From contig CALDDQ010000003.1 in assembly GCA_937936785.1 (NCBI GenBank), forward strand, positions 1 to 64,000: a DNA stretch of 64,000 nt, read 5' to 3'. Position 1 is the stretch's first letter, and each line of letters starts with the position of its first letter. Below are positions 1 through 12,348 of this stretch, piece after piece. A program made the position numbers and the translations under genes. The notes under the pieces are model-generated. The model was not told where the DNA came from, made no database searches, and was given only the letters and a program-made list of their open reading frames with translations. The stretch is from an uncultured Endomicrobiia bacterium (GTDB lineage: Bacteria; Elusimicrobiota; Endomicrobiia; DTEH01).

Positions 1-218
1 TTTCACAGGGCAACCCTAACATGCTTGGCAAGATCTTTCCGACGAAGAAAATTTTTCTATACTCAATTTCACAGGGCAACCCTAACGGCACGCAAAAACA
101 AAAGAACAGATGGAACATTTTTCTATACTCAATTTCACAGGGCAACCCTAACTTGTTTGAAGACTGGAGAAATGGGTTGACTATTTTTCTATACTCAATT
201 TCACAGGGCAACTTTAAC
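1..218. CRISPR. CRISPR array (partial, right end), 36-nt repeats with 30-nt spacers
   Basis: Four repeat copies are visible: a partial one at 1-20, two identical full copies at 51-86 and 117-152, and a terminal copy at 183-218. The terminal copy differs near its right end (CTTTAAC instead of CCCTAAC). On the + strand the repeat begins ATTTTTCTATACTC and ends GGGCAACCCTAAC. Spacers at 21-50, 87-116 and 153-182 are each exactly 30 nt and unrelated to one another. A 36/30 geometry and a minus-strand repeat beginning GTT are typical of type II systems, but no cas gene lies in the window, so the type is an inference. The degenerate copy marks the right edge of the array; the rest continues off the left edge. 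Confidence 0.95.
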
Positions 219-230
219 AAAAAACAACAC

Positions 231-260
231 CGATATGGTTTAGCCTGTGAACAAATTTCA
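231..260 (-). other. Anti-repeat-like segment next to the CRISPR array
   Basis: Just outside the terminal repeat, the minus strand reads TTCACAGGCTAAACC. This matches TTCACAGGGCAACCC of the + strand repeat at 12 of 15 positions, so it lies in inverted orientation relative to the array. Paired with a minus-strand crRNA repeat it would form about 12 Watson-Crick pairs and one G-U wobble. That is what a tracrRNA anti-repeat looks like. However, only a short stretch and a T-run separate it from the array, so a full tracrRNA with downstream hairpins is not evident. It may instead be an eroded inverted repeat copy. Confidence 0.3.
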
Positions 261-385
261 AAGAACTCTTTTAATTTTACAATAAATTAAACAAAATTTC
301 AACAACATATTGTTATTTTTAAAAAAAAATTGTATTGTTGTATAAAATCTATAAAGCAAACTAATACAATTACATAAAAAATTTA

Positions 386-1441
386 ATGAAAATTTTAATT
401 ACAGGAGCAAATGGTTTTGTTGGAAGTTCAATAGTAGATTATATTTCTTCTTACCAATTTAAAAATTTGCTACATAAAAATTCAGAACAAATTATAATAA
501 ATTGTATGGTAAGAAAAAGTAGTAACGTTAAAAGATTAAATTCTATAATTGAAAAAATAGACAAAATAAAAAATATATCATTAAATTTTGTCTATGGAGA
601 TATCAGAGAACCACAAACTTTATCAGATGCAATTAAAGGTGTTGATATAATAATACACTGTGCAGCATTGTTAAGAACAAACAATGTTCAAGAATATTAT
701 GATGTAAACCACATAGGCACAAAAAATTTGTTAGAAACAATTCGTTTACATAACCCAAACTTAAAATGTTTGATTGCAATATCTTCTCAAGCAGTTTCTG
801 GGCCTTGTGATAAAAACCAAAAAAAATCTGTTGATGAGATATGTGCACCTGTATCACATTATGGTAAAAGCAAACTTCTCGCAGAAACCGAATTGTTAAA
901 ATATTCAAAAATTATTACAACTATAGTTTTGCGACCAGGACCAATTTATGGACCTTACGATAAAGATATGTTTTTATATTTTCAATATGCAAAAAAAGGA
1001 TTATTGCCAATTTTTAGTAATGAGTTTTTTATCCAGTTTACTTTTATTGACGATTTAGCAAATGTTTGTACAAAAATTATTGAATTTATATTAGATAAAA
1101 CAAAAAAAATTAATCCCGGAATATATTTTGTTGCAGAAGAAAAATGTTATAGCATAGAAGAACTAAAAGATATTTTTAGTGAAACTGTTGGTAAAAAAAT
1201 TAAAATTTTTAAACTACCATCCTTTGTTGCGTATTCATATGCTTACATAAACGAACTTGTTCACAAGTTTTTATTTAAAAAACCTGCTGTGTTTAACCGA
1301 GATAAACTTAATGAGTTAAAACAGAAGTATTGGTTGTGTCACAGTTCAACTATTAAAGAAATATTAGATGTTAAGTATACACCACTTATTGATGGTATTA
1401 GAAAAACTTATCAATGGTATAAAGAAAACAAATGGTTGTAA
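386..1441 (+). CDS. NAD-dependent epimerase/dehydratase (extended SDR family)
   Basis: A 351-aa protein starting with a Rossmann nucleotide-binding motif TGANGFVGSS (residues 6-15). It has the catalytic YGKSK (YxxxK) near residue 158 and an upstream Ser-rich SSQAVSG strand, the standard Ser/Tyr/Lys triad of extended short-chain dehydrogenases. Members act on nucleotide sugars or on steroid-like and isoprenoid substrates. The sequence does not say which; the LRPGPIYGP segment after the active site is common in NDP-sugar epimerases and 3-beta-HSD-like proteins. It is a monocistronic gene between the CRISPR array and the rubredoxin operon. No Shine-Dalgarno precedes the ATG, and the upstream DNA is almost pure A+T. 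Confidence 0.85.
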   Translation: MKILITGANGFVGSSIVDYISSYQFKNLLHKNSEQIIINCMVRKSSNVKRLNSIIEKIDKIKNISLNFVYGDIREPQTLSDAIKGVDIIIHCAALLRTNNVQEYYDVNHIGTKNLLETIRLHNPNLKCLIAISSQAVSGPCDKNQKKSVDEICAPVSHYGKSKLLAETELLKYSKIITTIVLRPGPIYGPYDKDMFLYFQYAKKGLLPIFSNEFFIQFTFIDDLANVCTKIIEFILDKTKKINPGIYFVAEEKCYSIEELKDIFSETVGKKIKIFKLPSFVAYSYAYINELVHKFLFKKPAVFNRDKLNELKQKYWLCHSSTIKEILDVKYTPLIDGIRKTYQWYKENKWL

Positions 1442-1504
1442 AAATTTTACAATGAAAATAAAAAAATTATTATATGTGCTAAAATTAAAAAAACAACAAA
1501 AATG

Positions 1505-1531
1505 TTGAAAAAAAATTATTATTTATATAAT
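1505..1531 (+). promoter_or_regulatory. Putative promoter of the rubredoxin-ferritin operon overlapping a palindrome
   Basis: TTGAAA (1505-1510) lies 15 bp before a perfect TATAAT (1526-1531); a shifted -35 would give 17-18 bp. The -10 sits inside an inverted repeat with 9-bp arms (AAATTATTA at 1513-1521 and TAATAATTT at 1528-1536), which recalls AT-rich Fur/PerR-type operators. The downstream genes all serve oxygen and peroxide defence, so a peroxide-sensing repressor is a reasonable but unproven guess. Confidence 0.4.
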
Positions 1532-1572
1532 AATTTAAAAAAAATTAAAAGTAAAAATGGAGGAAATTAAAT

Positions 1573-1734
1573 ATGCAAAAATATGTGTGTATAGTATGTG
1601 GTTACATATACGACCCGGAAAAAGGTGATCCTGAATCAAACATTGCACCAAACACGCCTTTTGAACAATTACCTGATAGCTGGGTTTGTCCAGTATGTGG
1701 TGCAGATAAAAGTCAATTTGAAAAAGAAAACTAA
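1573..1734 (+). CDS. Rubredoxin
   Basis: A 53-aa protein with both iron-binding knuckles: CIVCG near residues 6-10 and CPVCG near 39-43. The intervening [10 protein letters not shown] and F..LP..WVCP signature of rubredoxins is intact. The single Fe(Cys)4 centre carries electrons in the cytoplasm, typically to rubrerythrin, superoxide reductase or oxygen reductases. A strong GGAGG ribosome-binding site precedes the ATG. It is the first gene of a tight run with ferritin, a ferritin-like protein and thioredoxin reductase, which supports a role in detoxifying peroxide or oxygen in an anaerobe. Confidence 0.97.
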
Positions 1735-1767
1735 AAAAAATTTATTATAAAAAAGGAGAAACATATT

Positions 1768-2259
1768 ATGATAAACTCAAAAATTGAAGAAGAGTTAAAC
1801 AAACAGTTAAACAGAGAAATTTTTTCTGCATATTTATATCTATCAATGGCAGCATATTTTGAAAGTGAAAATCTAAAAGGTTTTGCTCATTGGATGAAAG
1901 TTCAATCTAAAGAAGAAACTACACATGCAATGAAGTTTTTTAATCATATAATTGAACGAAATGGTAGAGTAATGTTAGAAAAAATTGATACACCAAAAAT
2001 TAATTGGAAATCTACAGCAGAAGTGTTCAAAGATGCTTATGAACATGAAACAAAAATTACTAATTTTATTTATGAAATTCTTGAACTATCCAGAAAAGAA
2101 CAAGATTATGCAACAGAAAATTTTTTACAATGGTTTGTTTCGGAACAGATTGAAGAAGAATCTCAAACTTTAGAAATTTTACAAAAACTTGATAAAATAA
2201 AAGATTCTACTGGCGGATTGTTGGTTTTAGACCATCATTTAGAAAAAAGAGAAGGATAA
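1768..2259 (+). CDS. ftnA: Ferritin (bacterial non-haem type)
   Basis: A 163-aa four-helix protein of the usual bacterial ferritin length. The ferroxidase-centre signature is present: an N-terminal NREIFSAYLYLSMAAYFE helix, the EETTHAMKFF (ExxH) motif near residue 50, and the C-terminal FVSEQIEEE segment. It stores iron as ferric mineral in a 24-mer and limits Fenton chemistry. It has a clear AGGAG ribosome-binding site and lies 33 bp after rubredoxin, presumably in the same transcript. The gene symbol is by family resemblance. Confidence 0.95.
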   Translation: MINSKIEEELNKQLNREIFSAYLYLSMAAYFESENLKGFAHWMKVQSKEETTHAMKFFNHIIERNGRVMLEKIDTPKINWKSTAEVFKDAYEHETKITNFIYEILELSRKEQDYATENFLQWFVSEQIEEESQTLEILQKLDKIKDSTGGLLVLDHHLEKREG

Positions 2260-2304
2260 ATTATAATTTAAATTAAAGCATAAAATTTAATAGGAGTAAT
2301 ATTT

Positions 2305-2787
2305 ATGGGAAACTTGTTCTCTATATCAGAAATATTTCAGTTTGCAATAAAAATTGAAGAAAACGGAGAAAAATTTTATAAAATGGCAGCAGAAAAAACT
2401 TCTGATCTTACAGTGAAAGAAATTTTTTTAATACTTTCAGAAGAAGAAATCAAACATAAAAATGTTTATTTAGAAATGTTAAGTAAGATAGAAAGTTACC
2501 AACCAGAAGAAAATTTTCCTGAAGAATATTTCCTTTACTTAAAATCTTATGCCGATAACATAATATTTAATTCTAAAGCACAAGAAGATTTAAAAAAAAG
2601 TTTTAGCACAATATCTGCAATAAATTTCGCTATTCAAAGGGAACTTGACTCCATACTATATTATTTGGAATCAAAAAATCTTATCCCCAAAATACAGGCA
2701 CAACTTGTTGATAAAATAATTGAAGAAGAAAGAAAACATTTTGTAAAACTTACTGATTTAAAAAATTCGTTAGAGAAACAAAAATAA
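2305..2787 (+). CDS. Rubrerythrin-like ferritin-superfamily protein
   Basis: A 160-aa helical protein with two ExxH-type di-iron motifs: EENGEKFYKMAA near residues 17-28 with SEEEIKHKNVY near 49-59, and EEERKHFVKL near residue 142. These match the rubrerythrin di-iron domain. No C-terminal rubredoxin domain (CxxC pairs) is present, so this is a 'half' rubrerythrin that would need the separate rubredoxin encoded at the operon start. It is probably a peroxide reductase or a ferritin-like iron protein; the exact activity cannot be read from the sequence. An AGGAG ribosome-binding site precedes the ATG. Confidence 0.85.
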   Translation: MGNLFSISEIFQFAIKIEENGEKFYKMAAEKTSDLTVKEIFLILSEEEIKHKNVYLEMLSKIESYQPEENFPEEYFLYLKSYADNIIFNSKAQEDLKKSFSTISAINFAIQRELDSILYYLESKNLIPKIQAQLVDKIIEEERKHFVKLTDLKNSLEKQK

Positions 2788-2792
2788 AAGTT

Positions 2793-3701
2793 ATGAATGT
2801 ATTAGACCTTATTATCATAGGAGCAGGACCTGCTGGTATCACAGCAAGCATATACGCTGCAAGAAAAAAATTAGATTTTATAGTTATTACTAAAGACATT
2901 GGTGGACAGGCTGTTTTAAGTTGGGATATAGAAAATTATACCGGATATCAATTTGTTACAGGACCAGAATTGGCCATAAAATTTAAGGAACACTTAGACA
3001 AATTTAATATTCAAATAAAAGAACAAGAAACTGTTTTAGAAATAAAAAAAGAAAATCAATTTATTAAAATCAAAACAGATAAAGATAATTATTGCTCAAA
3101 AACTGTTTTAATTTGTTCTGGCAGAATACCTAAAACTTTAAATGTAAAAGGAGAAGAAGAGTTAAAATATCGTGGTGTAACATATTGTGCAACTTGTGAT
3201 GGACCACTATATAAAGAAAAAACAGTGTTAGTAGTAGGTGGCGGAAACTCCGGTTTTGATGCTGCTATACAACTTGTAAAAATTGCAAAAAAAGTTTATC
3301 TTATAGAATCTTCAAACAAACTCATTGCAGATAATGTAATGATAGAAAAATTAAAACAAGCAAATAATGTTGAAATATATACAAACTCTAGAGTTTTAGA
3401 AATTTTTGGTGAAAAAACAGTTTCTGAAGTAAAAGTTTTATTAAACGGTGTAGAAAAAAATTTAAGTGTTCAAGGGATATTTGTAGAAATAGGGTCAAAA
3501 GCATCTTCGGATTTTATAACTGATGTTGCTAAAAATGATTTTGGCGAAATTTTAGTTAACTGTAAATGTGAAACTTCAACAGAAGGAATTTATGCTGCTG
3601 GAGATGTAACAAATGTTGTAGCAAAACAAATTATAGTAGCTTGTGGTGAAGGTGCAAAAGCGTTATTATCTATTTATGATTATTTAAACAAAACTTTTTA
3701 A
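2793..3701 (+). CDS. trxB: Thioredoxin reductase (NADPH, FAD)
   Basis: A 302-aa flavoprotein with an N-terminal FAD motif GAGPAGITAS near residue 9. The redox-active CATC centre (YCATCDGP) lies near residue 130, the second NADPH-binding GGGNSGFDAA follows near 150, and the C-terminal FAD clamp is YAAGDVT. Length and order are those of low-molecular-weight TrxB. It reduces thioredoxin or a similar thiol carrier with NADPH. It starts 5 bp after the rubrerythrin-like gene, so it is the last gene of the oxygen-defence operon and may supply electrons to its peroxide-reducing proteins. Confidence 0.95.
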   Translation: MNVLDLIIIGAGPAGITASIYAARKKLDFIVITKDIGGQAVLSWDIENYTGYQFVTGPELAIKFKEHLDKFNIQIKEQETVLEIKKENQFIKIKTDKDNYCSKTVLICSGRIPKTLNVKGEEELKYRGVTYCATCDGPLYKEKTVLVVGGGNSGFDAAIQLVKIAKKVYLIESSNKLIADNVMIEKLKQANNVEIYTNSRVLEIFGEKTVSEVKVLLNGVEKNLSVQGIFVEIGSKASSDFITDVAKNDFGEILVNCKCETSTEGIYAAGDVTNVVAKQIIVACGEGAKALLSIYDYLNKTF

Positions 3702-3716
3702 CTTAATTTACAAACC

Positions 3717-3755
3717 ATAAACTATATTTTTTTTTCTCACTTTTAGTTTATTTTT
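3717..3755 (+). terminator. Hairpin followed by T-run between trxB and the pyruvate kinase gene
   Basis: ATAAACTA (3717-3724) and TAGTTTAT (3744-3751) form an 8-bp stem with a T-rich 19-nt loop. Four Ts follow, running directly into the ATG of the next gene. It could end the trxB operon or occlude the pyruvate kinase start. The stem is all A-T except one G-C pair, so it is weak. Confidence 0.3.
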
Positions 3756-4781
3756 ATGGTAAAAACAAAAATAATTGCAACTCTCGGACCATCAACTTCT
3801 AATGAAACTATTATTAGGAAGATGATGTTATCAGGACTTGATGTTGTAAGATTAAATTTTTCACATACAGATTATAAGGAAATTATTGAAAAAATAAATA
3901 TTGTTCGATATTTGAATAAAAAATATCGTAGAAAAATTAAAATTCTTGGAGATTTACAAGGTCACCGTATTAGAATAGGAAAAATTGATACTGAAATAGA
4001 ATTAAAAAAAAATAAATTATTATTTTTAACTCAGGAAAATGTTATAGGAAACTCTGATATGGTACACTTCGATTATAAAGGTTCTTTAAAACCAATAAAA
4101 AAAGGTATGCAAATATTTATTGATGACGGTAACATCGCATTGGAAGTTATTGAAAAATATGAAAACAAATTAAAAACAAAAGTAATTGTTGGAGGTATAT
4201 TAAAACAAAACAAAGGTGTAAATATACCACAAGCAAAACTTGATTTTGGTAAAATAAGTAAAAAAGATATTCAGGACATACTTTTTTGTAAAGTAAATAA
4301 TATTGATTATATAGCACAATCTTTTGTAAGAACAGAAAAAGATGTTTTAGAAGTAAAAAATATTTTAGGAAAAATATCTAACTGCAAGATCATATCTAAA
4401 ATTGAAAATATAGAAGGTTTAAATAACATTGATAAAATTATTAATGTTTCTGATGGGATAATGATTGCACGAGGTGATTTAGGTGTATCTTTACCTATTT
4501 ATCAAGTACCAATAATACAGAAAATTATCATAAAAAAATGTAATAAAAACAAAAAATTTGTCATTACTGCAACACAAATGATAGAAAGTATGACAGACAA
4601 CCTTCGTCCAACAAGAGCTGAAGTAACTGATGTGGCTAATGCAGTATTGGATGGAACAGATTATGTAATGCTTTCTGCTGAAACAGCTGTCGGTAAATAT
4701 CCAGTTGAGACAGTTATATTGATGAACAATATATTAAAATACACTGAAAAAAATTTGCATAAGTTAAAAATAATCAAATAA
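3756..4781 (+). CDS. pyk: Pyruvate kinase, short form lacking the C-terminal domain
   Basis: A 341-aa protein; ordinary pyruvate kinases have about 470 or more residues. The catalytic A and B domains are complete: KIIATLGPS at the N-terminus, the NFSH motif, the IDDGNI loop and the active-site SKIEN lysine. They are followed by MIARGDLGV and the substrate signature ending [16 protein letters not shown]. The protein ends soon after TAVGKYPVE, so the roughly 130-residue C-terminal domain that carries allosteric sites is missing. Only 57 bp separate it from the next gene, so the missing domain is not encoded nearby in another frame. It should convert PEP and ADP to pyruvate and ATP, possibly without effector control. 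Confidence 0.92.
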
Positions 4782-4838
4782 ATATCTTACATATTACACT
4801 AAATTTTTCTACAAAAAAAATTTTTTTTGGAGAATAAA

Positions 4839-7520
4839 ATGGAAAAAAAATGGTACACTATTGGTGTCGAAGAAATATTAGATTTACTAAAAACTTCATT
4901 AAATGGTTTAACAACACAAGAAGCACAATATCGGCTCAAAAAATATGGATATAATGAAATTTTAACCAAAAAAAAAACCTCCCCAATAATAATATTTTTA
5001 AGACAATTCTTAAATCCATTAGTATATTTGTTGATAGTTGCCTCTGTAATAAAATTTTCTTTAGGTAAATACCTTGATGCAAATGTAATATTAGGTGTGT
5101 TATTGTTTATGGCAATAGTTGGATTTATACAAGAATTTCGTGCTGAAAAAGCTATGGAAGCATTAAAACAACTTGCTTCTCCAAAAGCAAAAGTAAAACG
5201 TAACTCACAAATAGAACTAATACCTTCTAACGAAGTTGTTGTTGGAGATATTATTATTTTAGAATCCGGTGATAAAGTTCCTTCTGATGCACGAATTATA
5301 GAATCTGCAAGTTTAAAAGTTAATGAATCAATACTTACAGGAGAATCTGTTGCTGTAGACAAGTTCGCTGGTGTTATAAAAGATAATGTTGGTATAGTTG
5401 AACAGAAAAATATGTTGTTTATGGGAACAACAGTAGTTTATGGTAGAACAATAGCCGTTGTTACTGCTACAGGAATGTCAACAGAGATAGGAAAAATCGC
5501 TTTCGCACTAAAAGAAATAAAACAAGAACAAACTCCGTTACAAAAAAGTATTCATAATTTAGGGAAAGGTATTATTATTGTTATACTTTGTATGACATTT
5601 ATCTTAAGCATAATTGGTATTTCAAAAGGTATGAACTGGATTGATGTTTTTATGATTTCTGTTGCATTAATGGTAGCAGCTGCACCAGAAGGATTGCCTG
5701 CAACTATTACTGTTATATTGTCTATAGGAATGCAGATGATGGCAAAGCGTAATGCTATAATACGAAAACTTGTTGCTGTAGAAACTCTGGGGTCTACTAC
5801 TGTTATTTGTAGTGATAAAACTGGAACTTTAACTCTAAACCAAATGACTCTAAAGCGTATTTATGACAATGAACGAATGATTTTGTTAAAAGAGAAAGAT
5901 GATAAAACAGAATTCTTTTATAAAAATAAAACTTTGGATGTTAACAATGATGATATCCTAAAACTTATTTTTGAAATTTGTGTACTATGTAACGATGCTT
6001 CTTTAAAATTCGAAAACAACAACATTAATGTTATTGGTGATCAAATGGAAGGAGCGTTACTCATATCTGCTAAAAATGCTGGAATAACAAAAGAAAGTTT
6101 AGAAATTAAATTTAAACGTATAAGCGAAATACCGTTCCAAAGTGAAAATCAATATATGGCAACTTTATATAAAAAAGAGTATAAAAATGTTGCTTATGTT
6201 AAAGGATCGCCGGAAAAAGTTTTATCATTGTGTAACTACATAACTAAAAATGAAAAAATTATTCCGTTAACAGAAGAAATAAAATCTCAAATAAGTTTAA
6301 AAGTAGAACTAATGGCAAAAGATGCTTTACGGGTAATTGCTCTGGCATATTGCGATTTAGGACAACAAAATCTTACCGAAGAAAGTATTAAAGGTAAACT
6401 TGTATTTAGTGGTTTAGTTGGATTAATTGATCCACCAAGACCTGAAGCAATAAATTCTGTAAAATTATGTCAACAAGCAGGGATTAAAGTAGTAATGATT
6501 ACAGGAGACAATAAACTAACTGCTCAGACAATTGCAAAAGAAGTAGGAATACAATCTGATGAAGTTATCACAGGACAAGAATTAGAAGAATTAACTGAAG
6601 ACGAACTTGCAAAAAAAATTAAACAAGTATCAGTTTTTGCTCGTATAGAACCTTTACATAAACTAAAAATAGTAAATGCATTTAAAAAATTAGGTAACGT
6701 AGTAGCAATGACCGGTGATGGAGTAAATGATGCTCCTGCACTAGAAACTGCAGACATCGGAGTTGCAATGGGTATCACAGGAACTGATGTTGCAAAAGAA
6801 TCTGCAGATATGATACTTGCAGATGATAATTTTGCTACAATAGTATCTGCTGTAGAAGAAGGAAGAGCAATTTTTAACCGTTTACGAAATGCAACAGGAT
6901 TTCTTCTCACAACCTGTTTTGGAGAGTTGTTTACATTAATTTTTTCTGTAATATTTACTGGAATATCACCTTTGCTACCTGTTCAAATATTATGGATAAA
7001 TCTTGTCACTGGAGCTATAATGTCTATACCTCTTGGATTAGAACCTAAATTTGGTAATGAACTTCAATTTCCGCCAAGACACTATAAAGTAGGACTTATA
7101 TATCCTGGTATGATAAAACGAATTGCATTTTTATCGTTAGCACTAAGTCTTGGGAGTTTTTTGGTATATATATGGAGTTTAAAAAGGTTCAGTATAGAAG
7201 AAACACGAACAATAGTATTTTTGTCCGTGGTAATTTTTGAATGGTTTTTAGCATTCAATATGAGATCAGACGAAATTTCAGTTTTTAAGCTAGGATTATT
7301 TAAAAATCCTGCTTTGATTAAGGGTTTGATTGTAGCAATAATTTTACAGTTGGGAGTAATTTATGTAGGAATTTTTAGAACATTTTTTGATACTGTAATT
7401 CTTGGCTATAAAGGATGGATTGTTGCAATATTACCTGGATTATCAATTTTTATTTTAGAAACGTTACGTAAAACATTTTTTCCAAAATTGTTTAGCAAAG
7501 GCAAATGGCAACCAATATAA
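4839..7520 (+). CDS. Cation-transporting P-type ATPase (P2A, Ca2+-ATPase-like)
   Basis: Start chosen at the ATG with GGAG seven bases upstream; an upstream TTG at 4827 is in frame but overlaps that site. About 893 aa. It shows the actuator-domain TGES loop, the PEGLP metal-site helix, and the phosphorylation motif DKTGTLT. It also has the KGSPE nucleotide-binding motif, MTGDGVNDAPAL hinge and a C-terminal block of membrane helices. The N-terminal cation-ATPase domain and the PEGL motif place it with Ca2+/Mn2+ pumps of the P2A type rather than heavy-metal (CPx) pumps. It would export Ca2+ across the inner membrane. It overlaps the truB start by 16 bp. Confidence 0.93.
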   Translation: MEKKWYTIGVEEILDLLKTSLNGLTTQEAQYRLKKYGYNEILTKKKTSPIIIFLRQFLNPLVYLLIVASVIKFSLGKYLDANVILGVLLFMAIVGFIQEFRAEKAMEALKQLASPKAKVKRNSQIELIPSNEVVVGDIIILESGDKVPSDARIIESASLKVNESILTGESVAVDKFAGVIKDNVGIVEQKNMLFMGTTVVYGRTIAVVTATGMSTEIGKIAFALKEIKQEQTPLQKSIHNLGKGIIIVILCMTFILSIIGISKGMNWIDVFMISVALMVAAAPEGLPATITVILSIGMQMMAKRNAIIRKLVAVETLGSTTVICSDKTGTLTLNQMTLKRIYDNERMILLKEKDDKTEFFYKNKTLDVNNDDILKLIFEICVLCNDASLKFENNNINVIGDQMEGALLISAKNAGITKESLEIKFKRISEIPFQSENQYMATLYKKEYKNVAYVKGSPEKVLSLCNYITKNEKIIPLTEEIKSQISLKVELMAKDALRVIALAYCDLGQQNLTEESIKGKLVFSGLVGLIDPPRPEAINSVKLCQQAGIKVVMITGDNKLTAQTIAKEVGIQSDEVITGQELEELTEDELAKKIKQVSVFARIEPLHKLKIVNAFKKLGNVVAMTGDGVNDAPALETADIGVAMGITGTDVAKESADMILADDNFATIVSAVEEGRAIFNRLRNATGFLLTTCFGELFTLIFSVIFTGISPLLPVQILWINLVTGAIMSIPLGLEPKFGNELQFPPRHYKVGLIYPGMIKRIAFLSLALSLGSFLVYIWSLKRFSIEETRTIVFLSVVIFEWFLAFNMRSDEISVFKLGLFKNPALIKGLIVAIILQLGVIYVGIFRTFFDTVILGYKGWIVAILPGLSIFILETLRKTFFPKLFSKGKWQPI

Positions 7521-8251
7521 ATATTTCATCATTAGAATCTAATTCGTTTAAAGAAAATAAATTGAAAAGAAATGTATTTCAAGAAGGACTTTTTGCTGTA
7601 TATAAACCAAAAGGTTGGACTTCTGCTCAAGTGGTAAATTATGTAAAAAAACATTCTAAAACAAAACGTGTTGGTCATGGTGGAACTTTGGATCCGTTTG
7701 CTGAAGGTGTATTGGTTATAGCTGTGGGTAGAAAATATACAAAAAAATTAACTGATATATTGAAAAATTCTCAGAAAGAATATTTAGCAGAAATTTTGTT
7801 AAACAAAAAAAGTGATACTTATGATACTACCGGTAATATTATAAATGTTGAAATAAAAGAAATCCCATCAAAAGAAAAGGTTCAATTTGAGTTATTAAAA
7901 TTTGTTGGAGAAATTGAACAATTACCACCACCATATTCTGCGATAAAAATTGCAGGAACACGTGCATGTGATTTAATTAGAAAAAATAGATTTTCTTTTG
8001 AAGAAATTAAAAAAGTTATAAAACCTAAAAAAGTAATTATAAACAAAATTGAAATTTTAGATTATAAATTTCCTTTGTTAAAATTAAAAATTAGTTGTAT
8101 GTCTGGAGTATACATTCGTTCTTTTGCAAAAGATTTTGGTGAACAACTTAATTGTGGTGGAATATTAAAATCTCTTATACGAACACAAGTCGAAAATTTT
8201 CAGATTGAAACTGCAATAAGATTGAAAAATGACAATCAGAGTATTTTATAG
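7505..8251 (+). CDS. truB: tRNA pseudouridine(55) synthase TruB
   Basis: A 248-aa protein with the catalytic GGTLDPFAEGVL motif (active Asp). The KPKGWTSAQVV entry motif and the YSAIKIAGTRA and GVYIRSFAKDFG blocks typical of TruB are also present. It isomerises U55 in the T-loop of tRNAs. The start lies inside the end of the ATPase gene and gives about 25 residues more than usual before the first conserved motif, so translation may begin later; no later ATG supports this clearly. The 3' end overlaps the next gene by 23 bp, implying coupled translation. Confidence 0.93.
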   Translation: MATNINISSLESNSFKENKLKRNVFQEGLFAVYKPKGWTSAQVVNYVKKHSKTKRVGHGGTLDPFAEGVLVIAVGRKYTKKLTDILKNSQKEYLAEILLNKKSDTYDTTGNIINVEIKEIPSKEKVQFELLKFVGEIEQLPPPYSAIKIAGTRACDLIRKNRFSFEEIKKVIKPKKVIINKIEILDYKFPLLKLKISCMSGVYIRSFAKDFGEQLNCGGILKSLIRTQVENFQIETAIRLKNDNQSIL

Positions 8252-8876
8252 TAATTATAAGCTTCTATTATTGTTGTTAGTTTTGTTAGATTTTTGTTTA
8301 CCACTATATATTTTTGCAGATGTAAATCAAGATATAAATTTTTTAAAACACAATTTCTATGTTGGTTTTGAAGTTTCTGAGCTATTGCAAAATAATTTCA
8401 CGGATTTTGGAAATAAAAATTTTACTTTTTTTCTTGGACAGAAATTTTGGTTCAAAAATTTACAAAACTTTGGCTATCGTTTTTTATTAATAAATGTTGA
8501 CTTGTCATCAGAACATCTAAAAGAAAATAATTTTATCAAAGGTGATAAGTCGGGACTAACAGGAAATCTTATTGCAAGCAGAATTTATCTTGATTGGTAT
8601 ATAGCAAGAAAAAAACTGTTGTTTACAAGCATTTATCCAATATTTAGTACAGGTTTTGGTTTTAATAAGAACGTTGTTACAAATAAAGAAATTTATGATT
8701 TTAGAGGAATTACACTAAATATAGGATTTCGTTTGCAGAACGAATTTTTTGAGAGAATATTTATTGAATTTCCTGTTGTTGATACTTTTGTATATCTATG
8801 GAAAAACAGAAATGCAAAAGGTAATATTGATAATACACTAATTGATTATCCAGAATGGGGCATGATCTTTTTGTAG
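8229..8876 (+). CDS. Secreted protein of unknown function, possible small beta-barrel
   Basis: A 215-aa protein not recognised as a known family. It begins with a short basic stretch, a leucine-rich hydrophobic core (LLLLLLVLLDFCLPLYIFA) and a plausible cleavage site after IFADV, so it should be exported. The mature part alternates polar and aromatic or hydrophobic residues (LGQKFWFKN, NIGFRLQNEF), as in outer-membrane or periplasmic beta proteins. The gene overlaps the end of truB by 23 bp. No partner gene suggests a function. Confidence 0.6.
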   Translation: MTIRVFYSNYKLLLLLLVLLDFCLPLYIFADVNQDINFLKHNFYVGFEVSELLQNNFTDFGNKNFTFFLGQKFWFKNLQNFGYRFLLINVDLSSEHLKENNFIKGDKSGLTGNLIASRIYLDWYIARKKLLFTSIYPIFSTGFGFNKNVVTNKEIYDFRGITLNIGFRLQNEFFERIFIEFPVVDTFVYLWKNRNAKGNIDNTLIDYPEWGMIFL

Positions 8877-9391
8877 ATAAATCTTGGTGTAAAATTTTTT
8901 TGGTAACATAGACTAATTATATGAATATATTTTAATTTAATACTAAAAAATTTTTATTATGAAAAATAAAAATTCATATTTTAGAAAATTTTTATTTATT
9001 TTCCATCTTATTCTATTTTTTAAAATATGTTTTTTCACATAGATTTTTGGACGCAGGATTATTATGAGATGGAAGTTCTTTTGCAGTACTTGTTCATACA
9101 AAATTTTTAACAAAGTAAGTGTCTTAACACAAGTCTGATACAAAACAAAAGGATATATGACTGGCAAGACAACAAAAAAGAGTGTTATAGGTTATTTTGG
9201 TTTAAATTATAATATTAGTGGTAATTGATATACTAAAAAATAAACAAATTCCTTACAAAAAAAATAAGATAAACATTTAGTTAATATATTTTTTCATTCA
9301 ATATTTTAAAAAAAATAATTTTAATTTTTTTTATAACAACTTTTATAATTTTATTGAATTACAAAACTAAATTTTAGTATATTAGAAAATT
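8877..9391. other. Gene-poor stretch with possible relic of a secreted protein gene
   Basis: No intact gene is visible. An ATG at 8959 opens a 27-codon frame resembling a signal peptide (basic start, then FLFIFHLILFF) that stops at 9040. Shifting frame by one base continues as HIDFWTQDYYEMEV and further open sequence broken by a stop codon near 9109. This looks like a decayed gene but could be chance in AT-rich DNA. The far end contains the promoter of the HPS-RraA gene. Confidence 0.3.
9354..9383 (+). promoter_or_regulatory. Putative promoter abutting the HPS-RraA start codon
   Basis: TTGAAT (9354-9359), an 18-bp spacer and TATATT (9378-9383). Only 8 bases separate the -10 from the ATG at 9392, so a normally spaced start site would yield a leaderless or 1-2-nt-leader mRNA. 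No Shine-Dalgarno is present. Confidence 0.45.
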
Positions 9392-10687
9392 ATGAAATAT
9401 CCATTACTGCAGATAGCTTTAGATTTTATAGATTTACCACGAGCTGTTGTTGTTGCAAAAGAAGCGATAAATGCCGGAGCTGATATTATAGAAATTGGTA
9501 CCCCATTAATAAAATCTGAAGGAATGAATGCTATAAGAAAAATTCGTTCTGAAATACATAAAAATATTAAAATTGTAGCAGATATGAAAACTATGGATGT
9601 TGGACGAATTGAGGTAGAAATGGCAGCAAAATCTGGAGCTGATATTGTAGGAATTTTAGGTGTTTCAAACATTGAAACAATAAAAGAATCAATCAATGCA
9701 GCAAAAAATTATGGTTGCGAAATTGTTGTTGATATGATTGAAGTTAAAGATTTAATAAAAAAAGTTAAAGAAATTGAAAGATTGAAACCAAATTATTTCG
9801 GTATTCATATTCCAATCGATGAACAAATGAAAGGAAAAATTAGTTTTCATCAATTAAAACTAATAAAATCAATTACCAAAATTCCTATTTCTATTGCCGG
9901 TGGTATAAATTCGGAAACTGTAGTTGATGCAATTAGGTTCGGAGCAGATATTGTAGTTGTTGGAGGTGCTGTTACTAAATCAGAGAATGTTTCAAAATCA
10001 GTAAAAGAAATAAAATTAGCAATGATAAAAAAAGTAAAAATTAAAACTACACTTTATAAACGTGTTTTTGAAGAAAAAAATATAAGAAAAGTTTTAAATA
10101 AAGTATCCACAGCAAACATTTCTGATGCTATGCACCGCGAATCACCTATTTTAAAATTGAAACCTATTGTAGAAAACATAAAACTTATCGGACCGGTTGT
10201 AACTGTTAGAACATATCCTGGTGATTGGGCAAAACCTGTCCAAGCAATTGATTTTGCAAATAAAGGTGATGTAATAATTATTAACGCAGGAGGAGTGGCA
10301 CCGGCAGTTTGGGGTGAATTAGCGACAAATTCTGCATTAAAGAAAAAAATTGCTGGTGTTGTAATTTGGGGTGGGATACGAGACACACAAGAAATTAAAA
10401 AACTAAATTTTCCTGCATTTGCAAGTGTTATCACACCACAGGCTGGTGAACCAAAAGGTTTTGGTGAAATAAATGTCCCAATTACAATTTCTGAAAAAAA
10501 AATTTTTCCTGGTGATTGGGTTGTAGGAGACTGCGATGGAATAATTGTAATTCCAAAAGATGAAGTGGTAGAAATTGCAAACCGTGCTATGGATGTATTA
10601 GAACGTGAAAACCGTCTAAGAAAAGAAATATATGATGGATCAACATTAGCACAAACTGCTTATTTAAGCAAATGGGAAAAAAAATGA
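9392..10687 (+). CDS. Fusion of 3-hexulose-6-phosphate synthase and RraA-like domain
   Basis: A 431-aa two-domain protein. Residues 1 to about 205 are an OMP-decarboxylase-superfamily barrel (LQIALDF, IEIGTPLIKSEG, ADMKTMD, SIAGGIN, VVGGAVT), matching hexulose-6-phosphate synthase. Residues from about 225 to the end match the RraA/HMG-aldolase fold (GDVIIINAGG, VIWGGIRDT, GDWVVGDCDG). HPS condenses formaldehyde with ribulose 5-phosphate; in organisms lacking the oxidative pentose phosphate route, the reverse reaction supplies ribulose 5-phosphate. The RraA half may be an aldolase or decarboxylase rather than an RNase E regulator. No phosphohexuloisomerase gene is nearby. The last bases overlap the next start (ATGA). 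Confidence 0.88.
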   Translation: MKYPLLQIALDFIDLPRAVVVAKEAINAGADIIEIGTPLIKSEGMNAIRKIRSEIHKNIKIVADMKTMDVGRIEVEMAAKSGADIVGILGVSNIETIKESINAAKNYGCEIVVDMIEVKDLIKKVKEIERLKPNYFGIHIPIDEQMKGKISFHQLKLIKSITKIPISIAGGINSETVVDAIRFGADIVVVGGAVTKSENVSKSVKEIKLAMIKKVKIKTTLYKRVFEEKNIRKVLNKVSTANISDAMHRESPILKLKPIVENIKLIGPVVTVRTYPGDWAKPVQAIDFANKGDVIIINAGGVAPAVWGELATNSALKKKIAGVVIWGGIRDTQEIKKLNFPAFASVITPQAGEPKGFGEINVPITISEKKIFPGDWVVGDCDGIIVIPKDEVVEIANRAMDVLERENRLRKEIYDGSTLAQTAYLSKWEKK

Positions 10688-11748
10688 ACTCTTTTATTCC
10701 AACAAAATATTCTACTATGATTGGAAGTCTACCACATAAAGATCCAAAAAAAGCTGTTGAATTAGTATTAGAAAGTTTAAATCTACCAACATGGCCACAG
10801 TTGCCTAAAATAAGTTTTTTAGAACAAATGCATGTTCAATACACAGAAAATTTTCCTGGGATAAAAATTGATAAACAAAATGAAAAAATTTGGGTTGATA
10901 TGGAAAAATTCAATAATGAAGTAATAGATTTTTTTCAGAATTTTATTGATAATAAAACAGACTATTTTGCAATATCAACAAATTATGCCATTGGATTTTA
11001 TGAATTTATTAATCAGTTGATAAGTTTAAGAAATAAAATTTTATCAGTAAAATTACAAACTATAGGTCCAATAACTTTTGGATTAACATTAAAAGACCAG
11101 AATGGTAAAGCTATTTTGTATGATGCACAAGTTAAGGATACTGTAATAAAAAATGTTGTAATGAAATCTATTTGGCAAATAAAACAAGTTTTAAACGCAA
11201 TACCGGAAACAAAAAAAATTTTTCTTTTTCTTGACGAACCTTATTTAGCTGCATACGGTTCTGCATTCACAGCAATTTCTATGAATGATGTAAAAGAAAT
11301 TTTGTCAAACACAATTTTAGAAATAAAAAATCAACTTTTAATTTTGTCACTTTATGACAAGTTTAATTTGTCAATAGGAATTCATTGTTGTGCAAATACC
11401 GATTGGGGAATAATATCAACCTTGGACTTAGACATTTTATCATTTGATGCACACGATTTTTTCAACGATTTTGTTTTATACTCAGAAAATATTATTAAAT
11501 TTATAAATGATGGCAAACAAATTGCTTGGGGTATAGTACCTAATAATAAAAATATTGATGTAGAAAATATAACAAGTTTATTAGAAAGTTTAAATAATAA
11601 TATTTTATTTTTTGAAAAAAAAGGTGTAGATAAAACTAAACTTTTAAACAATATCATACTAACACCTCAATGCGGATTAGGAAATGCAACTGAAGAAGTT
11701 GCTAAAAAAGTTTTGAAAACCTGTAGTGATATAATTAGTACCTTATAA
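10684..11748 (+). CDS. MetE-like (cobalamin-independent methionine synthase family) protein
   Basis: Start chosen at the ATG overlapping the previous stop (ATGA coupling); another ATG lies 12 bp upstream. About 354 aa, close to the length of the catalytic half of MetE and of the UROD/MetE-like single-domain proteins. Visible family traits are the opening STMIGSLPHKDP, the FLDEPYLAAYGS strand, the zinc-ligand-like SIGIHCCANTDW motif, LDILSFDAHDF and the closing ILTPQCGLGN. It probably transfers a methyl group using zinc-activated thiol chemistry, but whether the product is methionine is uncertain because the N-terminal MetE domain is absent. It is translationally coupled to the HPS-RraA fusion. 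Confidence 0.78.
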   Translation: MNSFIPTKYSTMIGSLPHKDPKKAVELVLESLNLPTWPQLPKISFLEQMHVQYTENFPGIKIDKQNEKIWVDMEKFNNEVIDFFQNFIDNKTDYFAISTNYAIGFYEFINQLISLRNKILSVKLQTIGPITFGLTLKDQNGKAILYDAQVKDTVIKNVVMKSIWQIKQVLNAIPETKKIFLFLDEPYLAAYGSAFTAISMNDVKEILSNTILEIKNQLLILSLYDKFNLSIGIHCCANTDWGIISTLDLDILSFDAHDFFNDFVLYSENIIKFINDGKQIAWGIVPNNKNIDVENITSLLESLNNNILFFEKKGVDKTKLLNNIILTPQCGLGNATEEVAKKVLKTCSDIISTL

Positions 11749-11775
11749 AATTTTTTATATAAAATCATAGAAATT

Positions 11776-12348
11776 ATGATACTCAAAGAATTAGTAAAAG
11801 AAAGGTTTAGTTGTAGGAAATATTTAAATCAACCTGTTGAGAAAGAAAAAATTTTACAATGTTTAGAATCAGCACGGTTATCTCCATCAGCGTGCAATGC
11901 TCAACCATGGAAATTTATTGTTGTAGATGATCCTGTTTTAAAACAAAATGTTGCACAAGAAGCTACTTCAGGAATTTATAAAATAAGCAAATTTTTGTAT
12001 AATGCACCTGTTATAATTATAGTTTTAGCTGATAAGGGAAGTTTTTTATCACTGGCTGGGTCATTAGTTCGCAATACACGATTTTATTTAGTTGACATTG
12101 GTATTGTTTGCCAACAATTAATTTTACAAGCAACAGAGTTAGGATTAGGCACATGTTATGTTGGGTGGTTTAATGAAAAACCATTAAAAAAAATGTTTAA
12201 TATACCAAAAAATGTAGAAATACCATTATTAATTTGCATAGGATATCCGGAGGAAAATTATAAACAAAAAGATCCTATACGACGTCACGCAGGTTCTGAA
12301 ACAAGAAAAAAAATTGATGAAATAGTATTTTTTAACGAATATAAATAA
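11776..12348 (+). CDS. Nitroreductase family FMN oxidoreductase
   Basis: A 190-aa protein with the family opening VKERFSCRKYLNQPVEKEKI, the FMN-phosphate-binding SARLSPSACNAQPWKF and the late glycine-rich ATELGLGTCYVGWF stretch. These proteins form homodimers that bind FMN and use NAD(P)H to reduce nitro compounds, quinones or flavins. The physiological substrate cannot be told from the sequence. It is short but complete for this subgroup. It starts 27 bp after the MetE-like gene. Confidence 0.88.
   Translation: MILKELVKERFSCRKYLNQPVEKEKILQCLESARLSPSACNAQPWKFIVVDDPVLKQNVAQEATSGIYKISKFLYNAPVIIIVLADKGSFLSLAGSLVRNTRFYLVDIGIVCQQLILQATELGLGTCYVGWFNEKPLKKMFNIPKNVEIPLLICIGYPEENYKQKDPIRRHAGSETRKKIDEIVFFNEYK

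What the first reader, a model, noticed from the sequence alone, without database searches (positions are those of the whole stretch)
1..260. Type II-like CRISPR array end with an inverted anti-repeat-like segment
The 36-nt repeat and exact 30-nt spacers fit type II-C arrays. Beyond the degenerate final repeat, 231-260 carries an inverted near-copy of the repeat end able to pair over about 15 positions with two mismatches. This could be a tracrRNA anti-repeat in an unusual place, transcribed towards the array, or the remains of an inverted repeat copy.
Basis: partly seen in the sequence, partly recalled or inferred. Interest (0 to 1): 0.55.

Follow-up and report, generated by a model that had tools for sequence, protein, structure and literature searches.

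The report
Ordinary CRISPR-Cas9 array's oldest end
This is the oldest end of an ordinary bacterial CRISPR-Cas9 (type II-C) spacer array; the small inverted piece beside it is not the guide-pairing RNA gene, which sits next to the cas genes, and most likely arose by chance.

Summary
The array is real: 36-nt repeats, 30-nt spacers, 66-nt period, ending at window 218. It is the leader-distal end of a type II-C system. The cas9-cas1-cas2 genes and the other array end lie on contig C18 (L010); gene order in relatives places C18 and C3 either side of one array. A conserved tracrRNA lies between cas2 and the array on the crRNA strand: -27.0 kcal/mol with the repeat's first 24 nt, against -20.2 for the best of 5086 background windows.

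The segment exists: 12 of 15 identities, two non-pairs if G-U is allowed. It is mildly unlikely by chance with composition-weighted scoring (7 of 765 windows), but unremarkable against the real, mutated end repeat (361 of 3194). That repeat has two changes in its crRNA-5' part, the published pattern for II-C extra repeats.

Similar inverted pieces flank the oldest repeat in some relatives (9 of 35 arrays at p<0.05, own included); one, G006, predicts a 12-bp helix. A leader-repeat hairpin blocking a useless first crRNA remains possible but weakly supported. Interest is low.

The parts
1..20 (-). partial CRISPR repeat (cut by the contig start); crRNA strand is minus
21..50 (-). spacer, 30 nt; no exact match in viral contigs
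51..86 (-). CRISPR repeat (crRNA sense GTTAGGGTTGCCCTGTGAAATTGAGTATAGAAAAAT)
87..116 (-). spacer, 30 nt; no exact match in viral contigs
117..152 (-). CRISPR repeat
153..182 (-). spacer, 30 nt, the oldest (inferred from its place); no exact match in viral contigs
183..218 (-). extra (oldest, leader-distal) repeat with two changes at 213 and 214, in the crRNA-5' part that pairs with tracrRNA; the crRNA-3' half, where a II-C repeat can carry a promoter, is intact
   Evidence: promoter role inferred from passages of PMC3656092
237..251 (-). inverted near-copy of the repeat (anti-repeat-like), 12 of 15 identical; probably chance
274..302 (-). sigma-70-like promoter match pointing at the array (TTGAAA-17-TAAAAT); not above chance
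   Evidence: 3 sites found in 1-420, shuffles mean 1.9, sd 1.4
386..1441 (+). NAD-dependent epimerase family gene, the chromosomal neighbour on the distal side; in relatives G002 and G004 it follows a recX-like gene directly

Best explanation
Window 1-218 is the leader-distal, oldest end of a type II-C CRISPR array in a bacterium of the phylum Elusimicrobiota. The array is split by the assembly between contigs C18 (cas9, cas1, cas2, tracrRNA, leader, first repeats) and C3 (this window). crRNAs are made from the minus strand, from this end towards cas2, probably from promoters inside each repeat (inferred from Campylobacter). tracrRNA is made from between cas2 and the array and pairs with the repeat for RNase III processing and Cas9 loading (inferred). 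The repeat at 183-218 is the 'extra' repeat: it has no spacer upstream, needs only its promoter half, and has drifted in its tracrRNA-pairing half. The inverted 15-nt segment at 237-251 is most likely a chance match with no function of its own.
For: cas9-cas1-cas2 and the start of the same array are on C18, and the repeat core (20 nt, up to 3 mismatches) occurs six times in the genome, on C3 and C18 only. In relative G002 a recX-like gene and the epimerase are adjacent with no CRISPR between; here recX is upstream of cas9 on C18 and the epimerase follows the array on C3. tracrRNA: anti-repeat plus conserved core, 12 copies in the 11 loci examined; with the first 24 nt of the repeat -27.0 kcal/mol, best of 5086 background windows -20.2; with the whole repeat -27.6 against -26.0. 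The extra repeat pairs less well with tracrRNA, -21.2. PMC12080349 reports mutations in 60% of II-C extra repeats, mostly in the first 15 nt. Segment near chance; minus-strand folding no better than shuffles (z -0.14 and 0.45).
Against: With composition-weighted scoring the segment is at about the 1% level (17 of 1553). Inverted near-copies of the repeat also occur just outside the distal end in 2 of the 5 other arrays with a GTTAGGGTTGCCC repeat (L107 p=0.015, L109 p=0.009; Fisher over those five 0.006). That hints that not all such matches are chance. The plus-strand fold of 184-270 is somewhat stable (z -1.46, 17 of 200 shuffles as good). The C18-C3 join is inferred, not sequenced.
Confidence: 0.77

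Rival explanations
1. The segment is part of the RNA upstream of the first transcribed repeat. When outside transcription enters the array from the right, it folds back on the extra repeat, hides it from tracrRNA, and so prevents a useless 'extraneous' crRNA, as the leader RNA does in type II-A and type VI.
For: Right place and strand. Similar inverted pieces just outside the end repeat in L107 (G204, +10 to +26) and L109 (G006, +20 to +31). In G006 a predicted 12-bp unbroken helix with the real extra repeat, -21.4 kcal/mol, 0 of 388 windows as good (stem length alone p=0.010). Anti-repeat-like pieces also in the related arrays L163, L167 and L170. 9 of 35 flanks p<0.05 by alignment, Fisher 0.0002. 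With repeats of unrelated arrays swapped in, few or none pair as well: 0 of 28 for L107, 1 of 28 for L109, 0 of 27 for L163, L167 and L170, 4 of 28 here.
Against: Here the helix with the real extra repeat is 8 bp and -13.2 kcal/mol, equalled by 361 of 3194 windows. By duplex energy only 5 of 35 flanks reach p<0.05, Fisher 0.06. G016, G064 and G177 lack it. G006's Cas9 gene looks broken. PMC12080349 states that earlier work found no such hairpins in type II-C. The leader side scores as often, 10 of 34, Fisher 0.00004, so the match is not special to the distal end. The test was designed after seeing the case.
Confidence: 0.13
2. The segment is a decayed inverted copy of the repeat or of the tracrRNA anti-repeat, left by a rearrangement at the old end of the array.
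For: 12 of 15 identity to the repeat complement; in L107 both a direct and an inverted repeat fragment lie just outside the end repeat (direct p=0.005, inverted p=0.015).
Against: No trace of the rest of the repeat or of the tracrRNA core beside it (read by eye). The best match between 220-385 and the leader/tracr region is AT-rich filler equalled by 214 of 500 shuffles.
Confidence: 0.08
3. The segment is the anti-repeat of the system's tracrRNA (or of a second one), transcribed towards the array.
For: Correct strand and partial complementarity to the repeat: -18.6 kcal/mol.
Against: A far better, conserved tracrRNA lies between cas2 and the array. The segment has no conserved core beside it (by eye). 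A 20-nt piece of the true tracrRNA occurs once in the genome, on C18, with up to 3 mismatches. No terminator-like site was found in 1-420, but none was found round the true tracrRNA either, so that does not discriminate.
Confidence: 0.02

Closest known systems
Type II-C CRISPR-Cas (Campylobacter jejuni / Neisseria type)
   Same: cas9-cas1-cas2, 36-nt repeats with 30-nt spacers, tracrRNA, mutated repeat at the first-transcribed, oldest end (architecture as in passages of PMC12080349 and PMC3656092; the Neisseria comparison is recalled)
   Different: tracrRNA lies between cas2 and the array, a position shared with the relatives read here; promoters inside the repeats are inferred only
Extra-repeat decay in type II-C (PMC12080349, abstract, passages and sections 16 and 20 read)
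   Same: two changes in the first 15 nt of the crRNA-sense extra repeat, weakening tracrRNA pairing from -27.6 to -21.2 kcal/mol
   Different: no experiment here
Leader-repeat hairpins of type II-A (Liao et al. 2022, seen only as cited in PMC12080349) and type VI (PMC13187072, outline and abstract seen)
   Same: an upstream stretch partly complementary to the first repeat
   Different: II-C, at the oldest end; here only an 8-bp helix, not above background

Membership tests
Type II-C CRISPR-Cas | Cas9 with HNH and RuvC | tested here: met
   TIGR01865 482.4 bits, cut-off 100; HNH_4 and RuvC_III above cut-off
Type II-C CRISPR-Cas | cas1 of type II and cas2 next to cas9 | tested here: met
   TIGR03639 265.8 bits, TIGR01573 59.9 bits, both over cut-off
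Type II-C CRISPR-Cas | no csn2 and no cas4 | tested here: inconclusive
   none seen among the ORFs of L010 and of window 1-12000, but read by eye; no csn2 or cas4 profile was run
Type II-C CRISPR-Cas | tracrRNA with anti-repeat complementary to the repeat | tested here: met
   L010 about 8335-8400 minus; -27.0 kcal/mol with the repeat's first 24 nt, best of 5086 background windows -20.2; conserved core in relatives
Type II-C CRISPR-Cas | promoter inside each repeat | not testable with these tools
   AT-rich crRNA-3' end of the repeats seen; needs TSS mapping
tracrRNA (claim for 231-260) | best anti-repeat of the system, with the conserved core beside it | tested here: not met
   104 of 5086 windows pair as well; core absent by eye; better candidate on C18
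Leader-repeat hairpin (II-A/VI kind) | helix with the extra repeat beyond chance | tested here: not met
   361 of 3194 windows as good for the real extra repeat
Leader-repeat hairpin (II-A/VI kind) | hairpin lowers extraneous crRNA | not testable with these tools
   needs RNA work

The most novel reading that the evidence does not exclude
Some Elusimicrobiota type II-C arrays, this one in a weakened form, carry an anti-repeat just outside the oldest repeat. It folds onto that repeat in read-through transcripts and blocks extraneous crRNA: a leader-repeat hairpin in the subtype where none had been found. G006 is the clearest case in sequence.
Probability: 0.13. Interest if true: 0.45.

Novelty: new member of a known kind. 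Interest (0 to 1): 0.2.

Why it matters
It adds a type II-C Cas9 (1164 aa; best relative found 61-62% identical) with its tracrRNA, repeat and array orientation from Elusimicrobiota, and removes a false tracrRNA candidate. If the hairpin reading held, it would extend a recently described control of useless guide RNAs to the Cas9 subtype where it was reported absent.

Tried and rejected
tracrRNA at 231-260: rejected. The terminator scan does not help: none in window 1-420 and none in L010 8300-8653 with the true tracrRNA. Rfam found nothing at E up to 1 in L010, L011 and L001. A consensus fold of the tracrRNA alignment gave no pairs; the change of the hairpin from CGGG/CCCG to CCGG/CCGG, CCAG/CTGG and CCCC/GGGG was read by eye. 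Protospacers: none of the five spacers has an exact match in viral contigs; nor has the repeat core. A promoter at 274-302 pointing at the array is not above chance. Homology of 220-385 to the leader/tracr region is not above chance. tblastn of the Cas9 in plasmids gave 57 records, all under 60% identity, the five listed at 24.8-29.0%.

Counts and dropped rows. A first test on 166-nt flanks gave: own 17 of 1553 windows as good, L064 19 of 410, G016 55 of 304, G064 39 of 190, L060 147 of 252, L067 11 of 383; G006 1 of 43, G177 113 of 387, G202 12 of 70. The G202:C32 hit was then dropped as a coding-sequence match and not a proven array end. In one search, 35 arrays were scored; eight flanks were skipped as too short or with N, and one array with a 32-nt repeat. 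Loci of the list in which the script found no array gave none, and L010, L011, L036, L056, L058 and L061 were not in the list. The array ends of the window and L107 were set by hand. L067 was scored on the leader side, because its crRNA strand seems to be the other one (p=0.37 when scored on the distal side; 0.56). In one search the end of L156 was shifted by one copy and is one base out of register. L163, L167 and L170 are close relatives and not independent. The tracrRNA motif was taken from copies already seen. In one search the whole-repeat value for the tracrRNA used an 87-nt target against 51-nt background windows; the 24-nt value holds in 51-nt windows too.

Full report
What is there. 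The window begins inside a CRISPR array: a partial repeat at 1-20, full repeats at 51-86 and 117-152, a slightly decayed repeat at 183-218 (C to T at 213 and 214), and three 30-nt spacers between them. The window is the start of contig C3 of a 1.56-Mb, 25-contig assembly. A 20-nt core of the repeat, with up to three mismatches, occurs six times in the genome: four times here and twice at the end of contig C18.

The system. On C18 (locus L010) the order is: recX (1887-2375), acetate kinase (2368-3552), cas9 (3632-7126, 1164 aa), cas1 (7110-8000), cas2 (7997-8323), a 168-nt gap, then repeats from 8492 to the contig end, which falls inside a repeat. In relative G002 a recX-like gene is followed directly by the relative of the epimerase gene that here starts at window 386. 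G004 shows the same pair in its ORF table, and in G003 it was read from the DNA print (the relatives' recX genes were named by eye). G001 does not show it. So the CRISPR-Cas block sits between recX and the epimerase, and C18 and C3 flank one array. This is an inference from gene order, not a sequenced join. Relatives of the Cas9 at E up to 1e-60 occur in 14 of the 340 genomes of the phylum searched, the own genome included; the best other is G204 at 62%. Named loci from another collection include Endomicrobiellum, Ruminimicrobiellum, an Elusimicrobium and several spirochaetes (16 loci), which places the genome in Elusimicrobiota.

The true tracrRNA. Between cas2 and the first repeat, on the minus strand, lies AAATTTCACAGGGGTACATCCTAATAAGAG, followed by TTCGCAAAATGC and a GGG/CCC hairpin. 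In the 11 loci given to a motif search, 12 such copies were found (G043 has two), all on the strand opposite to the cas genes and after what is, or reads as, the end of cas2. 11 of the 12 were aligned; the core CTAA.AAGA and ATGC is invariant. G177 shows the same by eye. With the first 24 nt of the repeat the duplex is -27.0 kcal/mol against -20.2 for the best of 5086 background windows (window 386-64000, both strands); with the whole repeat -27.6 against -26.0. This fixes the crRNA strand as minus, so the array is read from window 218 down to 1 and on towards cas2, and 183-218 is the first repeat transcribed.

The inverted segment. Positions 237-251 match the repeat complement at 12 of 15. 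Plain scoring makes this ordinary (655 of 3000 shuffles). Composition-weighted scoring puts it at 7 of 765 windows of 166 nt (17 of 765 in either sense) and 1 of 1479 windows of 43 nt. As RNA it pairs with the consensus repeat at -18.6 kcal/mol (104 of 5086 windows as good; 63 of 5086 for the first 24 nt). With the real, mutated extra repeat the value is -13.2 (361 of 3194). The minus-strand folds of 184-270 and 219-300 are no better than shuffles (z -0.14 and 0.45); the plus strand of 184-270 has z -1.46. The segment is thus at or near chance, before allowing for the fact that it was noticed first and tested afterwards.

Does it recur? I collected Cas9-linked arrays from relatives and scored the first 60 nt upstream of the first transcribed repeat for an inverted near-copy of the repeat. 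Of the six with the GTTAGGGTTGCCC repeat three do so: the window, L107 (G204) and L109 (G006); L033, L034 and L106 do not (Fisher without the window 0.006). The other 29 give 6 at p<0.05, Fisher 0.013. But the leader side gives 10 of 34 (Fisher 0.00004), and by duplex energy only 5 of 35 flanks reach p<0.05 (Fisher 0.06). With the real extra repeat only G006 of the six stands out (12-bp helix, 0 of 388 windows); own 361 of 3194, L107 92 of 590, L106 97 of 733, L033 121 of 593, L034 92 of 332. G006's cas9 seems to be broken. Arrays L163, L167 and L170 have an anti-repeat-like piece outside the end repeat, and with L168 a promoter-like TTGACA-18-TAATAT further out, read by eye; these four are related and not independent.

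Published frame. PMC12080349 (abstract, passages and sections 16 and 20 seen) defines the 'extra repeat' of II-C arrays as the oldest, first transcribed one. It reports mutations in 60% of extra repeats, mostly in the first 15 nt, and describes terminators and guide hairpins as other ways to silence the extraneous crRNA. It says that earlier work found leader-extra-repeat hairpins in II-A but not in II-C. PMC13187072 (outline and abstract seen) reports such hairpins in type VI. PMC3656092 (passages seen) reports promoters inside the repeats of the C. jejuni array. The window fits the first pattern: two changes in the first 15 nt of the extra repeat, lowering the tracrRNA duplex from -27.6 to -21.2 kcal/mol, with the 3' half intact.

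Verdict. An ordinary type II-C array end in a little-studied phylum. The anti-repeat-like segment is not the tracrRNA. Chance is its likeliest source; a weak leader-repeat hairpin is the most interesting reading not excluded. Paper searches made. PMC11257099, on Endomicrobia, holds the word CRISPR but was seen only in the search listing, so no claim is made that this system is undescribed. Checking against the calls added the terminator scan of the true tracrRNA, the further Fisher values and the state of G006's cas9; the odds are kept, apart from lowering the first explanation from 0.78 to 0.77 so that they add to one.

Noticed in passing
G000:C7 (L011 1-7616): A second type II system in the same assembly: Cas9 of 1593 aa, cas1, two cas2 genes on the opposite strand and an array with repeats of about 46 nt. 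No match at E up to 1e-60 in the other 339 genomes of the phylum searched; the 7.6-kb contig may be a contaminant or a transferred locus.
   Followed up: partly
L109 534-610 (G006:C18): The distal flank carries an inverted near-copy of the repeat predicted to form an unbroken 12-bp helix with the unmutated extra repeat; 0 of 388 background windows as good.
   Followed up: partly
L163, L167, L168, L170, distal flanks: These related arrays share a promoter-like TTGACA-18-TAATAT pointing into the oldest end (all four, by eye); three of the four (not L168) also have an anti-repeat-like piece next to the end repeat.
   Followed up: partly
L061 8582-8970, L067 11684-13313: In these two spirochaete loci the tracrRNA lies as elsewhere, but its anti-repeat matches the array the other way round, so the crRNA strand seems to be that of the cas genes (read by eye).
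   Followed up: no
L032 7110-7199 and 7228-7317 (G043): Two tandem tracrRNA-like copies between cas2 and the array.
   Followed up: no
L036 end and L109 start (G006:C19 and C18): At both contig ends the array turns round at a repeat as in a palindrome, which looks like an assembly or amplification artefact.
   Followed up: no
L022, L031, L020, L029, L019, L030: Cas9 relatives in G058, G017 and G006 come as two pieces in different frames. The repeat pattern was found once in G058, not in G017, and 15 times in G006.
   Followed up: no
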